A stretch of DNA of 64,000 bases, from NCBI GenBank assembly GCA_944323875.1, contig CALUUH010000007.1:24210-88209 (forward strand), given 5' to 3'. Made by a program: the position numbers and the translations under genes. This DNA comes from Candidatus Gastranaerophilales bacterium. Lineage in GTDB: Bacteria > Cyanobacteriota > Vampirovibrionia > Gastranaerophilales > Gastranaerophilaceae. Shown piece by piece: positions 5,840 through 43,855 of the stretch. Under the pieces are notes generated by a model. That model had not been told where the DNA came from and searched no databases. It was given only the letters and a program-made list of their open reading frames with translations. Numbering within the stretch: position 1 is the stretch's first letter; every line of letters starts with the position of its first letter.

Positions 5840-6373
5840 CTAATTTGGCTTTTTGTAAAAAAATACTTCTTCTTTCAGACATAAAGGGCAATACTGAGGT
5901 TCTTCCTTTTGAACAAATATTGCGCCGCAGGTAGAGCATACCCAATTGTATGTTCCGTCAGGATTTGCCGGGGTATCATCTTTTAGTTTGCAGATGAGTT
6001 TTTTCATACGGTCATAGTGAATTTTTTCTATATTCTCAATATTGGAAAACAATCCTGCTATATGTTCAAAACCTTCTTCACGTGCTTGTTTAGCAAAAGA
6101 TTCATATATTCCTTCAATTTCTTCTTTTTCATTTTTAAGAGCACTTTCAATATAATTAATTAAGCCGATAGGATTTTCTGAATTAAGCCATCTGTACCAG
6201 AGTTTTGCATGTTCTTTTTCATGGTCGGCAAATCTTGAAAGCAGTCTGCTTACATCTTCAAGTCCTTCCTTTTGCGCAATAAGTGCGTATATATCGTATT
6301 CAGAGCGGCGTTTTGAAACAATATCAAATGCTTTTTGTAAATTTTTTTCTGTTTGTGACCCTTTTATTCCCAA
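5840..6373 (-). CDS. Rubrerythrin (peroxide reductase), copy downstream
   Basis: The 177-residue protein is a classical rubrerythrin. It has a ferritin-like four-helix diiron domain (E..EH..KLWYRWL near residue 55 and the repeat E..E.IHYDRM near 130), then a C-terminal rubredoxin-like knuckle, WVCSTCGAIF...YCPLC, with two CxxC pairs for one Fe. Rubrerythrins reduce H2O2 to water with electrons from rubredoxin. The start appears to be TTG (TTG GGA ATA AAA), with GAGG about 9 bases before it; no in-frame ATG is nearby. It resembles the neighbouring copy at 6460-6999 throughout, so the pair probably arose by tandem duplication. A terminator hairpin separates the two. Confidence 0.93.
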   Translation of the reverse strand: MGIKGSQTEKNLQKAFDIVSKRRSEYDIYALIAQKEGLEDVSRLLSRFADHEKEHAKLWYRWLNSENPIGLINYIESALKNEKEEIEGIYESFAKQAREEGFEHIAGLFSNIENIEKIHYDRMKKLICKLKDDTPANPDGTYNWVCSTCGAIFVQKEEPQYCPLCLKEEVFFYKKPN

Positions 6374-27975: not shown

Positions 27976-28125
27976 AAAACACAAGTTGAATACTTGTGAC
28001 AAAACATATAAACCAAATAAAGGTGGTTTAATAAACAGAATTATTGTACAATATAAATCAATAAGGAGAATTTTATGAAAAATAATTTAATAAATGCTGA
28101 CACGATAAAAAAAGGAGATGCAACT

Positions 28126-29481
28126 ATGTACAACCAAAAAACAAACAGTTATGGCGGACAAGTCCGCTCTTACACATCAAAGGTGAGTGAAGTGAGTAGA
28201 GTGAGTGAAGTGAGTAAGATGTCGGAACAAGGCGAACAACAATCGCTACATTCCCTTCTCCCTCTGGGAGAAGGTGGCCGCAGGCCGGATGAGGGTTTAA
28301 AGGAAATCGTGCGATGCAACAGCGATGAGATCCTGAAACAAGTTCAGGATGACGGGACTCGTCACAAAGCCGCAGAGCCTAAAACCTGTAACCACTTATT
28401 CACTCAATCACTTAGTCACTTAATCACTTCCCAGAAGGCCGCCTTCACCTTGGCAGAAGTCCTAATCACCCTTGCTGTTATCGGCATTGTGGCCGCCCTG
28501 ACACTTCCGGGGCTCATACAGAACCATAACGAGAAGGCATGGTCTACAGCTAAAGACCTCTGGGAAAAGAAACTCACAGAAACCGTTAGAAGAATGAACA
28601 CCGACGGCGTCATGACCGGTCATGATACTACAGAGGATTTTATGGACACTTTCAAACAATATATGAAAGTCATCAAAACCTGTGATAACACAGATATTAA
28701 CAAATGTTATTCTCCTAAAGTCGTTACTACAGGAAGCAACGAAGAACCTATGGATGTTGAAACTGATTCTTTAACCTCTGCGTCCAGCATGGGACTAAGC
28801 GATTGGCAAACTAACACTAATACAATGTCTTTTGTAGTAGCGGACGGAACAACAGTTATTATGGCATACCAGCCGGAATGCCCTTACGCAGACCCTATAG
28901 AAGATACAGGTAGTCAGGTATCTTGCATGGGCTATATGGTAGATGTAAACGGAAAGAAAGGCCCGAATAGAGTAGGTAAAGATATTCAATTATCTTCCGG
29001 CGTAGCATTTTCAACCTGCGATAACCCGATAGGCGACATGTGCTGGAGTACGGAGTTCCAAGCGAATAGAGCAATAAACACCTGCGAAGGCAGTGAATAC
29101 GAAGATATGGAAGAACAACATGGAAGCAATTGTTCAACAAACTATTGGGCAGGCGCAAAACTAACTTGCCAAGAAAAAGGAATGGAACTTCCAACGAGAG
29201 CACAACTTGCACAATTAGCGAGTGAATTATATGTAAACTCAAGCGATGGAAGCACAGTAACGATAGGAGCAAACGAGGATAAATCAGGCCTCAAGGTAAA
29301 GGACGAATACACCCAAAATCCTCCAATCAAATACATTGGCTACAACTACTGGTCCAGTGAGGAGTACAGTGCTCTCAACGCGTACGGCCGGGACTTCGAC
29401 ACTACCTACACGGACGGCAGTGACGGTTACTGGGGCTACAAGAACAGCAGCAACCGCCGCGCTGTTTGTATTTCCAACTAA
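28126..29481 (+). CDS. Pilin-like protein with variable C-type-lectin-like tail (candidate DGR target 1)
   Basis: The protein has 451 residues from ATG at 28126 (AAGGAG 8 bases before); an in-frame ATG at 28075 would add 17. Residues 1-105 are a repeat-encoded leader, including VSEVSR tandem units and LHSLLPLGEGGRRPDEG. Then comes the prepilin motif AFTLAEVLITLAVIGIVAAL, with cleavage expected before Phe107, and a cysteine-containing pilin body. The C-terminal ~100 residues are lectin-like: a TRAQLAQLASELYVN segment, YWSSEEY, AYGRDF, YWGYK and the end RAVCISN. The last ~50 codons differ from the paralogue at 41954 only at first and second codon positions. The protein is likely displayed on a pilus or pseudopilus as a ligand-binding tip. 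Its binding partner is unknown. Confidence 0.85.
   Translation: MYNQKTNSYGGQVRSYTSKVSEVSRVSEVSKMSEQGEQQSLHSLLPLGEGGRRPDEGLKEIVRCNSDEILKQVQDDGTRHKAAEPKTCNHLFTQSLSHLITSQKAAFTLAEVLITLAVIGIVAALTLPGLIQNHNEKAWSTAKDLWEKKLTETVRRMNTDGVMTGHDTTEDFMDTFKQYMKVIKTCDNTDINKCYSPKVVTTGSNEEPMDVETDSLTSASSMGLSDWQTNTNTMSFVVADGTTVIMAYQPECPYADPIEDTGSQVSCMGYMVDVNGKKGPNRVGKDIQLSSGVAFSTCDNPIGDMCWSTEFQANRAINTCEGSEYEDMEEQHGSNCSTNYWAGAKLTCQEKGMELPTRAQLAQLASELYVNSSDGSTVTIGANEDKSGLKVKDEYTQNPPIKYIGYNYWSSEEYSALNAYGRDFDTTYTDGSDGYWGYKNSSNRRAVCISN
29326..29481 (+). other. Candidate DGR variable region 1
   Basis: Aligned codon by codon with 43241-43396, this region has 23 base differences in 17 codons, all at positions 1 or 2. 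Each variable codon keeps the same third base, and all fit a template of AAC, AAT, AAG or ACT changed only at A. Base composition shifts too: 34 of 60 bases at 29341-29400 are G or C, in an otherwise AT-rich gene. The invariant end (GCTGTTTGTATTTCCAAC) would correspond to the initiation-of-homing segment. Confidence 0.85.
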
Positions 29482-29500
29482 GGACAGCGTCCTTAGTTGG
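29474..29500. other. Hairpin directly after variable region 1
   Basis: A perfect 12 bp stem, CCAACTAAGGAC / GTCCTTAGTTGG, with a 3-nt loop spans the stop codon. The outer 10 bp and the following ACGTG are kept in the second gene, but the loop differs. DGR targets of the Bordetella-phage type need such a hairpin or cruciform next to the variable region. It could also act as a terminator, though no T run follows. Confidence 0.75.
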
Positions 29501-29581
29501 ACGTGCCTAAGTGATTAGCGGATTTGCGGACGGATGGAGCGAACGAAGTGAGCAAATCCGCTAGCGCCTTAGTGCTTTTTT

Positions 29582-41953: not shown

Positions 41954-43396
41954 ATGAAACAAAACAATGTTAATTATGAGCAACAACAGTTGCATTCCCT
42001 TCTACCTCTGGGAGAAGGTGGCCGAAGGCCGGATGAGGGTGCGGACGTAGTCCGCTCTCACACTCTGGAAACCGCTAAAGGCGGACAACAATCGTTACAT
42101 TCCTTCGCCCCTTGGGGAGAAGGTGGCCGAAGGCCGGATGAGGGTGCGGACGTAGTCCGCTCTCACACTCTGGAAACCGCTAAAGGCGGACAACAATCGT
42201 TACATTCCTTCGCCCCTTGGGGAGAAGGTGACCGAAGGTCGGATGAGGGGTTAAATGACGAACCCCGTCACGAAGCCGCAGAGCCTAAAAATGTAAAGGA
42301 CTTAACGTCTTATCGTCCTAACGTCTTAACGACTTCTAAGAAGGCCGCTTTCACTTTGGCTGAAGTATTAATCACCCTCGCCGTTATCGGAATAGTTGCC
42401 GCATTGACCTTACCGGGGCTGATCCAAAATCACAACGAGAAGGCATGGTCTACGGCTAAGGACCTCTGGGAAAAGAAACTAACTGAAACCGTCAGAAGAA
42501 TGAACACCGACGGTGTTATGACAGGACACAATACTACAGAAGACTTTATGGACTCTTTCAAACAATACATGAAAGTCATTAAGACCTGTGACAATACAGA
42601 TATTAACAAGTGTTATTCACCAAAAGTCGTAACAACAGGAAGCAACGAAGAACCTTTGGAAGTAGAAACTGACAGTCTTACAAGTGCATCAAGCATGGGC
42701 CTGAGCGACTGGCAGACTAATACTAATACAATGTCTTTTGTCATAGCAGACGGCACAACAGTGATTATGGCATATCAGCCGGAATGCCCTTATGCAGACC
42801 CGATAGAAGATACAGGTTCTCAAGTATCTTGTATGGCATATATGGTAGATGTAAATGGTAAGAAAGGACCGAATAGAGTTGGTAAAGATATTCAACTATC
42901 TTCAGGTGTTGCGTTTTCAACCTGTGATAACCCGATAGGAGACATGTGCTGGAGTACTGAGTTCGCGCCTACAGCAATAAATACATGTTCAGACGGAACA
43001 GAGGAAGATAAAGCTTACGACCAAATTGGAGACAGTAACAGCTACTGTGCAACTAACTATTGGGCAGGAGCTAAAAAAGCATGCGACCAGAAAGGCATGA
43101 GCCTACCTACGCGAGCGCAACTAGCACAATTAGCAAGTGAATTATATGTAAACTCAAGCGATGGAAGCGCAGTAACAATAGGTGCAAATGAGAACAGAGA
43201 AAGACTCAAAGTAAAAGACGAATACAGCCAAAATCCTCCAATCAAACACAATGGCTACCTCTACTGGTCCAGTGAGAAGTACAATGCTGACGGCGCGTAC
43301 CTCCGGAACTTCTACGCTACCTACACGTACGGCAGTGACATTTACTGGGGCTACAAGTACAACAGCATCTACCGCGCTGTTTGTATTTCCAACTAA
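41954..43396 (+). CDS. Pilin-like protein with variable C-type-lectin-like tail (candidate DGR target 2)
   Basis: The 480-residue paralogue of 28126-29481 has AAGGAG 8 bases before ATG. The first 132 residues are repeat-encoded: LHSLLPLGEGGRRPDEG, then a 35-residue unit twice in tandem. The prepilin motif AFTLAEVLITLAVIGIVAAL follows, with cleavage expected before Phe133. The pilin body is nearly the same protein as in the paralogue (for example GVMTGHNTTEDFMDSFKQYM), though the DNA differs at many silent sites. The lectin-like end has YWSSEKY, AYLRNF, YWGYK and RAVCISN. Variable residues cluster in the last 50 codons. The protein is probably surface displayed and may bind changing ligands. 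It has its own leader element upstream and a terminator downstream. Confidence 0.85.
   Translation: MKQNNVNYEQQQLHSLLPLGEGGRRPDEGADVVRSHTLETAKGGQQSLHSFAPWGEGGRRPDEGADVVRSHTLETAKGGQQSLHSFAPWGEGDRRSDEGLNDEPRHEAAEPKNVKDLTSYRPNVLTTSKKAAFTLAEVLITLAVIGIVAALTLPGLIQNHNEKAWSTAKDLWEKKLTETVRRMNTDGVMTGHNTTEDFMDSFKQYMKVIKTCDNTDINKCYSPKVVTTGSNEEPLEVETDSLTSASSMGLSDWQTNTNTMSFVIADGTTVIMAYQPECPYADPIEDTGSQVSCMAYMVDVNGKKGPNRVGKDIQLSSGVAFSTCDNPIGDMCWSTEFAPTAINTCSDGTEEDKAYDQIGDSNSYCATNYWAGAKKACDQKGMSLPTRAQLAQLASELYVNSSDGSAVTIGANENRERLKVKDEYSQNPPIKHNGYLYWSSEKYNADGAYLRNFYATYTYGSDIYWGYKYNSIYRAVCISN
42041..42250 (+). repeat. 105-bp in-frame tandem repeat within the pilin leader
   Basis: Two units (42041-42145 and 42146-42250) of exactly 35 codons, starting with the palindrome GCGGACGTAGTCCGC and ending in the LGEGGRRPDEG-type block. 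The second unit has diverged at its end (GDRRSDEG). Being a multiple of three, it can expand or contract without breaking the gene. Confidence 0.85.
43241..43396 (+). other. Candidate DGR variable region 2
   Basis: Partner of 29326-29481. The first codons ATC AAA and the final GCT GTT TGT ATT TCC AAC are identical between the two. Variable codon pairs (gene 1/gene 2) include TAC/CAC, AAC/CTC, CTC/GAC, AAC/GGC, GGC/CTC, GAC/TAC, GGT/ATT, AAC/ATC and CGC/TAC. At 15 of 23 differing bases one of the two copies has A; at the other 8 both differ from A. Confidence 0.85.
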
Positions 43397-43415
43397 GGGC
43401 TTTGGCCTTAGTTGG
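43389..43415. other. Hairpin directly after variable region 2
   Basis: A 10 bp stem, CCAACTAAGG / CCTTAGTTGG, with a 7-nt loop, then ACGTG, exactly as after variable region 1. The stem is kept while the loop sequence and length differ (7 nt against 3 nt), which suggests the structure matters. Confidence 0.75.
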
Positions 43416-43855
43416 ACGTGATTAAGTGACTAGGTGATTAAGTAATTACAGGAATAAAGCAACGTGGGACTTTTCTCACGTTGCCTTATTTTATCATATA
43501 AAGCGGTGGGCACGCTTGCGCTGTCTTGGATTTGCTTGTCGCATCGTTCGCGAATAACGAGTACGCTTACGCTTTAACTCTTCGCTCACTCGCTCTCCAC
43601 GCTCACGGAGACTCGCCTGAGGAGCATTGCTCCAGTCGGCTCGTTCCGTTCGCTATCCGGACTCGCTTTGCTCCATCCGTCCGCAAATCCGCTAATCACT
43701 TAGTCACAATCACAGTGCCTTAGTAACTTAGTGCCTTCCCTCCGAGCTTCCGCAAGGCAACGACTATGGCAATACGCAACGAAACAATTAACATTTTTTA
43801 AACTAAATTTTCTCAAACCTTATTTTTGTAGTATAATATCGTTGAGGTAACCGAA
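43397..43855. other. Intergenic region with terminator and repeats (459 bp)
   Basis: No gene is supported. It holds the second half of the post-variable-region hairpin, a terminator (43459-43484), a GC-rich stretch of CGCTCACTCGCT-like short repeats (about 43505-43690) whose end is the reverse complement of a segment at 29518-29540, CACTTAGTCAC units, a degraded family A repeat (43745-43786), and a TATAAT at 43832-43837 serving the symporter gene. Confidence 0.6.
43459..43484 (+). terminator. Terminator after the second variable pilin gene
   Basis: An 11 bp stem, GCAACGTGGGA / TCTCACGTTGC (one G-T pair), with a 4-nt loop, followed by CTTATTTT, 62 bases after the pilin stop codon. Confidence 0.75.

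What the first reader, a model, noticed from the sequence alone, without database searches (positions are those of the whole stretch)
29326..29481. Two pilin-like genes carry diversity-generating-retroelement-type variable regions (region 1)
Seen: codon-by-codon alignment of 29326-29481 with 43241-43396 gives 23 base differences in 17 codons. All are at codon positions 1 or 2, none at position 3. Every variable codon fits an AAC, AAT, AAG or ACT template changed only at adenines; at 15 sites one copy still has A. In the ~120 bp just upstream the genes show at least six silent third-position differences, so the 3-prime ends have been overwritten from a common source and then mutated at A. Known: this is the footprint of DGRs, where an error-prone reverse transcriptase copies a template repeat with A-to-N errors into the 3-prime end of C-type-lectin-fold genes. 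Inference: both genes are remote DGR targets giving a hypervariable pilus-linked binding surface.
Basis: partly seen in the sequence, partly recalled or inferred. Interest (0 to 1): 0.96.

Follow-up and report, generated by a model that had tools for sequence, protein, structure and literature searches.

The report
Frozen library of retroelement-written pilin tips
This bacterium carries at least 41 scattered pilin-like genes whose ends bear the fingerprint of a protein-randomising reverse transcriptase, yet that enzyme and its template are missing from the genome assembly, so the lineage likely wrote a large set of binding tips and then lost the machine that wrote them.

Summary
In detail: 23 base differences in 17 codons, none at third positions. 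The DGR reading is right about origin, probably wrong about present activity. Both genes belong to a set of at least 41 loci on 24 contigs of this 1.94-Mb genome (same genus as a Gastranaerophilales MAG): prepilin-type N terminus, predicted C-type-lectin-fold C terminus, DGR-type 3' end. A template predicted from these variable regions alone found a non-coding template repeat beside an Avd gene in sister species G005; 20 of 21 window differences inside the homology fall on its adenines. Sister species G001 has an Avd-TR-RT cassette with VRs changed almost only at A. In G005 one DGR-type RT lies on another contig than two Avd-TR units. The window's own genome (97% complete) shows no RT, Avd or TR; the site where G005 holds its RT is assembled and empty; nine close ortholog pairs show 0 or 1 VR change. 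Best reading: a DGR-written repertoire, now likely frozen. Main rival: machinery missing from the assembly.

The parts
28075..29481 (+). Gene 1: pilin-like target gene, 468 aa; its true start is uncertain
   Evidence: ORF; prepilin motif above Pfam and NCBIfam cut-offs
28432..28503 (+). Prepilin cleavage/methylation motif of gene 1 (KAAFTLAEVLITL...)
   Evidence: PF07963, residues 120-143, 22.1 bits, cut-off 21.2
29002..29478 (+). C-type-lectin-fold domain of gene 1 (predicted)
29338..29469 (+). Variable region of gene 1, the stretch homologous to template TR1 of G005
   Evidence: Over 29338-29478: mismatch to TR1 at 23 of 54 A and 9 of 87 other bases, 6 of those 9 beyond 29469
29473..29501 (+). 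Inverted repeat across the stop codon of gene 1 (13-bp stem, 3-nt loop)
   Evidence: family statistics
41954..43396 (+). Gene 2: pilin-like target gene, 480 aa; its true start is uncertain
   Evidence: ORF; prepilin motif
42335..42409 (+). Prepilin cleavage/methylation motif of gene 2
   Evidence: PF07963, residues 128-152, 23.9 bits
43253..43384 (+). Variable region of gene 2, the stretch homologous to TR1 of G005
   Evidence: Over the 141 nt compared: mismatch to TR1 at 24 of 54 A and 10 of 87 other bases
43388..43416 (+). Inverted repeat across the stop codon of gene 2 (11-bp stem, 7-nt loop)
   Evidence: family statistics

Best explanation
The two genes belong to a dispersed set of at least 41 pilin-like loci whose C-type-lectin-type 3' ends were likely written by a diversity-generating retroelement that this lineage has probably since lost, leaving a frozen repertoire. 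Shown by calls: the family and its spread; bases varied at positions that are adenines in the template of a sister species, with little change elsewhere; an inverted repeat across the stop codon with compensatory base changes in most members; template, Avd and DGR-type RT in the same genus; their absence from this assembly. Inferred from known DGRs: an ancestral RT-Avd complex copied a TR1-like template RNA with errors at A, and the cDNA replaced the 3' end of each target, guided by the inverted repeat. Inferred: in G005 the unlinked RT serves both Avd-TR units and the dispersed targets in trans. Inferred: the lectin domains sit on pilus-like fibres or a pseudopilus and bind varied ligands. 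Inferred and least certain: in the window's species RT, Avd and template are really gone, so the variable regions now change only by ordinary mutation and gene conversion.
For: Third positions unchanged against a background where they carry most change. Inferred template retrieves a real TR next to an Avd gene in G005 as best match among six genomes. Mismatch to that TR: 513 of 1092 A cells against 136 of 1617 other cells in 21 G000 VRs. G001 TR-VR pairs: 15/15, 15/15, 15/15, 18/19, 16/17 and 19/21 substitutions at A. Inverted repeat of 10 bp or more in 27 of 40 G000 and 27 of 32 G005 VRs, about 0.1% in shuffles, with four compensatory pairs. No RT, Avd or template in G000; RT site of G005 empty in G000. 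Nine close ortholog pairs with 0 or 1 VR change.
Against: The genome is a 97.1%-complete MAG in 49 contigs; several VR copies lie at contig ends, so a TR-bearing contig could be lost. The window VRs look fresh: 0 and 1 changes at 76 non-A sites. The contrast with the RT-bearing species is weak: Fisher p 0.014 only if ten identical pairs are set aside, 0.25 if they count; non-A decay in G000 against G005 gives p 0.04 and 0.17 in two tests. Among pairs with 9-11 upstream differences 9 of 11 have 12-22 VR differences, which could be paralogs, sister species or real rewriting; L020-P0187 has 5 and 5. Whether G000 ever had the RT at that site is unknown.
Confidence: 0.58

Rival explanations
1. The DGR is alive in this species, and its RT, Avd and template lie on contigs missing from the MAG.
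For: 2.9% of the genome is estimated missing; VR-like repeats sit at contig ends (for example C38, C34, C42); G001 holds the whole machinery within 3 kb of one contig; window VRs show 0 and 1 non-A changes.
Against: RT, Avd and TR are all absent, and in G005 they lie on three contigs. Nine close ortholog pairs show no rewriting.
Confidence: 0.33
2. The machinery comes and goes on a mobile element or is supplied from a prophage or plasmid in some cells, so that rewriting is episodic.
For: The RT site differs between G001 and G005, and the G005 site is empty in G000; RTs of this type are scattered, in 20 of 117 family genomes.
Against: No mobile genes were identified around the G005 RT by eye; the template core gave no match in viral contigs and the RT one match at 29%.
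Confidence: 0.06
3. Gene conversion among paralogs plus diversifying selection made the pattern, without a DGR.
For: Some VRs are shared between genes with different upstream parts (P0132 and P0142; L273 and P0213), so conversion does occur.
Against: Change is concentrated at positions that are A in an independently found template, and third positions of the variable codons are the same in at least 15 of 18 copies; selection on protein alone would not spare non-A bases.
Confidence: 0.03

Closest known systems
Bordetella phage BPP-1 DGR (prototype; PMC3240598 and PMC12875486, passages)
   Same: A-directed change in the 3' end of the target gene; Avd, TR and RT (in the sister species); inverted repeat just after or across the target's stop codon.
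   Different: BPP-1 has one target next to one compact cassette; here 41 or more remote targets and, in this assembly, no machinery. Stems here run to 15 bp and loops are mostly 3, 5 or 7 nt, not the GRNA tetraloop.
Cyanobacterial DGRs with remote variable proteins (PMC7517822, passages)
   Same: C-terminal C-type lectin domains in paralogs dispersed over the genome; one Nostoc paralog keeps TR-VR homology without a nearby RT, and the authors suggest removal of the machinery once a variant is selected.
   Different: That paper counts 121 DGR-diversified genes, 76 of them remote, over 21 genomes; here one genome has at least 41, on pilin-like proteins, and no RT at all was found.
Thiohalocapsa PB-PSB1 DGRs (PMC10907252, passages)
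   Same: Incomplete DGR loci and targets best explained by trans activity.
   Different: Targets there belong to putative conflict systems; here pilin-like proteins. In G005 a single RT is apart from both Avd-TR units.
Multiple-VR DGRs of a large survey (PMC6642488, passages)
   Same: 271 of 948 DGRs there have several VRs.
   Different: An extreme case quoted there has 21 VRs inside one ORF; here each target gene carries one VR. I claim no record number.

Membership tests
DGR target gene (variable protein) | Variation confined to positions that are A in a template repeat | tested here: met
   Against TR1 of G005: 47% of A cells and 8% of other cells changed in 21 G000 VRs; window pair 20 of 21. 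The species' own template was not found, so TR1 is a proxy.
DGR target gene (variable protein) | Variable region at the 3' end of the gene, in a C-type-lectin-fold domain | tested here: met
   Positions; predicted fold
DGR target gene (variable protein) | Inverted repeat downstream of the VR (7-10 bp stem, GRNA loop in phage DGRs) | tested here: inconclusive
   Stem met in 27 of 40 G000 VRs (10 bp or more) with compensatory pairs; loop consensus not met (PMC3240598 passages)
DGR target gene (variable protein) | Retrohoming shown by experiment | not testable with these tools
   Sequence data only
Complete DGR in the window's genome | RT with the (I/V/L)GxxxSQ motif | tested here: not met
   No RVT_1 match, no match to the G005 RT or to the RT alignment in G000. 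Present in G005 and G001 (IGNLTSQ)
Complete DGR in the window's genome | Template repeat | tested here: not met
   24-nt core with up to 3 mismatches: 4 places, each inside a VR already listed. Present in G005 and G001
Complete DGR in the window's genome | Avd accessory gene | tested here: not met
   Only a 23S rRNA intervening-sequence protein in G000. In G005 and G001 three genes pass the Pfam bAvd cut-off but stay under the NCBIfam Avd cut-off
Type IV pilin / pseudopilin | Prepilin-type N-terminal motif | tested here: met
   PF07963 and TIGR02532 above cut-off in both window genes; motif in 36 of 38 loci examined, missing in L024 (near a contig end) and L040
Type IV pilin / pseudopilin | Assembly into a fibre | not testable with these tools
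   No experiment; the middle of the model has low confidence

The most novel reading that the evidence does not exclude
A DGR can serve as a library builder rather than a permanent mutator: this bacterium wrote a repertoire of more than 40 different lectin-tipped pilins across its genome, then shed the writer and keeps the library as fixed genes, while a sister species runs the same kind of library with a dismantled DGR whose lone RT serves two remote Avd-template units in trans.
Probability: 0.5. Interest if true: 0.85.

Novelty: new variant of a known kind. Interest (0 to 1): 0.74.

Why it matters
It would give DGRs a second role: founding a large repertoire of binding proteins that outlives the mutator. 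One genus holds what look like three stages side by side: a complete cassette (G001), a dismantled but equipped genome (G005) and a library without a writer (G000). That makes testable how DGR targets multiply and what happens once the RT is lost. It also puts DGR-diversified pilin-like proteins in Gastranaerophilales; the library searches I made (no paper; listings only) showed no paper describing that.

Tried and rejected

Dropped before counts: L033 and L037, missed by my tail pattern, so 40 G000 loci were analysed (38 plus L279 and L280); L040 (C27) is doubtful as a member (no prepilin motif in the frame read) and is left out of the 41, though it is among the 40 analysed; 19 of 40 G000 and 15 of 32 G005 VRs without a gap-free core; L265, L267 and L275 without a recognised tail; L090, tried, gave no alignment above my score limit; G005 loci with under 100 upstream residues and 10 identical G005-side pairs were left out of the ortholog contrast. 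Not all first-look candidates were scored (50, 47 and 65 found in G000, 40 scored), so 41 is a minimum; one search covers the template by pattern. One output compared a VR with itself by mistake; one search replaced it.

Full report
OBSERVATION. The window is G000:C7:24210-88209, part of a MAG of 1,942,552 bases in 49 contigs, completeness 97.1%, contamination 0.39%. ORFs 28075-29481 and 41954-43396 were read and aligned by codon. The claim holds: 23 differences, 17 codons, none at position 3, A in one copy at 15. In codons 121-400 of the same gene pair third positions carry 102 of 140 differences.

THE FOOTPRINT. In 18 aligned G000 VRs about 17 codons vary widely at positions 1 and 2, with the third position the same in at least 15 of 18, while upstream codons vary at position 3. 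From these VRs alone I inferred a template with AAC at those codons and searched the six genomes of the genus. The best match was G005:C12:10073-10204, 95% over 132 nt: it lies outside the listed reading frames and is followed on its strand by a 123-aa protein above the Pfam bAvd cut-off. With that TR1 as template, 21 gap-free G000 VRs (of 40) differ at 513 of 1092 A cells and 136 of 1617 other cells; 17 G005 VRs (of 32) at 371 of 884 and 51 of 1309. The window pair: 20 of 21 differences inside the homology are at TR1 adenines; each copy against TR1 differs at 23 or 24 of 54 A and 9 or 10 of 87 other bases, 6 of the latter in the last nine bases, where VR and TR1 ends differ in type. The G000 majority differs from TR1 at three positions outside the A sites, so G000 probably had a slightly different template of its own (inference).

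THE MACHINERY IN THE GENUS. G001 has a VR, Avd, TR and RT in order on contig C23. TR-VR differences there and in VRs on other contigs fall at A in 15/15, 15/15, 15/15, 18/19 and 16/17 cases, and 19 of 21 substitutions plus a 6-nt insertion in one more. It has one RT of this type on C9, TR1-Avd on C12 and a unit of pilin VR, Avd and TR2 on C19, whose TR2 and adjacent VR differ at 21 sites, 20 at A. No TR was found in the 16 kb around the G005 RT, and the Avd search gave no place on C9. The RTs carry IGNLTSQ, the SQ motif of DGR RTs (PMC3521204, passages); the Avd matches the PHROG 'Avd protein of DGR' but stays below the NCBIfam Avd cut-off.

ABSENCE IN THE WINDOW'S GENOME. RVT_1: none. G005 RT: no match in G000, G002, G003, G004. 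RT alignment: none in G000. Avd: only a 23S rRNA intervening-sequence protein. Template core with up to 3 mismatches: 4 places, each inside a VR listed. The G005 RT lies between a Maf-like gene and a 372-aa gene; in G000 these neighbours are contiguous: alignment blocks end at 6029 and resume at 6104 of L125, against 7504 and 8780 of L073 in G005. In G002-G004 the homology ends at the 372-aa gene and the G001 contig ends within it, so gain and loss are not separated.

FROZEN OR LIVE. Two searches listed 147 hits beyond the window's own (P0123-P0269). For 38 G000 loci, nine pairs with at most 4 of 140 upstream residues different have 0 (8 pairs) or 1 (1 pair) VR differences. With the whole mature protein, 10 listed pairs with 2-8 upstream differences, one listed twice under two ids, all have 0. 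Against this: of 11 pairs with 9-11 upstream differences, 9 have 12-22 VR differences, and L020-P0187 has 5 and 5. The database shows one representative per 90% cluster, so variants that differ only in the VR are hidden. On the G005 side L245-P0251, L247-P0269 and L263-P0154 have 1, 1 and 2 upstream and 13, 15 and 17 VR differences, L248-P0189 has 1 and 0, and ten further pairs are identical. Setting these ten aside as probable own records gives Fisher p 0.014; counting them gives 0.25. Changes at non-A sites: none in 4 of 21 G000 VRs against 9 of 17 in G005 (Fisher p 0.04; Mann-Whitney p 0.17); the window copies have 0 and 1 of 76. The frozen reading is favoured, not proven.

INVERTED REPEAT. 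A stem of at least 10 bp lies at the VR end in 27 of 40 G000 and 27 of 32 G005 VRs, against about 0.1% of shuffles. In the 55 of 72 whose left arm spans the stop codon four positions show compensatory pairs: -4 C-G 31 / G-C 21; +4 G-C 36 / A-T 19; +5 G-C 29 / A-T 12; +6 C-G 22 / G-C 18, counted from the first base of the stop codon. BPP-1 needs such a structure after its VR, with free stem sequence (PMC3240598, passages). Loops here are mostly 3, 5 or 7 nt, unlike the GRNA tetraloop. Most VRs without the repeat end in a TCGGGAG-like sequence before the stop, like TR1 itself.

HOW IT LIKELY WORKS. Established for DGRs: RT and Avd copy template RNA with errors at A, and the cDNA replaces the VR. 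Inferred here: targets multiplied as stand-alone pilin-like genes (the neighbours tested in the window are enzymes, a transporter and a tRNA synthetase), each carrying the repeat that marks it for homing; a remote writer could then give each a different lectin surface. Trans activity has been argued for Thiohalocapsa (PMC10907252, passages), and the reconstituted BPP-1 cassette acts on a target on another plasmid (PMC12875486, passages). In G000 the writer is not found. Ligands and role are unknown; attachment to particles, mucus or other cells is a guess.

NOVELTY. The mechanism is known. What differs: at least 41 dispersed targets in one small genome, prepilin-type targets in this order, an RT apart from two Avd-TR units in a sister species, and a library without a writer. 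PMC7517822, PMC10907252 and PMC6642488 come near; in the passages I saw none describes these together. PMC8144416 states that its survey would not detect remote targets (passage). Searches for DGR with Gastranaerophilales or Melainabacteria returned 0 papers; searches with pilin or pili returned listings in which I saw no such description.

Noticed in passing
window 28075-28431 and 41954-42334: The N-terminal 120 or so residues before the prepilin motif read like translated intergenic repeats (LLPLGEGGRRPDEG, VSEVSEVSKMSEQG, QVQDDG); several paralogs hold the FTLAE motif twice (L008, L010, L016, L025). The true start may lie further in, or repeats have been captured into the leader.
   Followed up: no
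window about 29505-29530 and 43415-43450; also other family loci: Octamer-like repeats (AAGTGATTAAGTGACTAGGTGATT) follow many of the target genes just after the inverted repeat.
   Followed up: no
G042 (family genome), for example L233, L237, L240, L242: A genome of another genus in the family has 13 matches to the C-terminal domain and two RTs of the DGR type: possibly an independent expansion.
   Followed up: no
L253 (G005:C10) and P0125; L273 (G005:C15) and P0213: The same VR occurs in genes whose upstream parts differ (7 of 149 and 16 of 138 residues), which points to conversion or transfer of whole VRs.
   Followed up: partly
L016, L021, L027, L029, L030, L032, L035 (G000); L268, L274 (G005): A second class of VR ends in CTCGGGAG before the stop codon, like TR1 itself, and lacks the inverted repeat across the stop.
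   Followed up: partly
L042, L044, L045: Other RT-domain proteins in the genus; L042 looked retron-like to me and L045 is a 1068-aa open frame, both by eye only.
   Followed up: no
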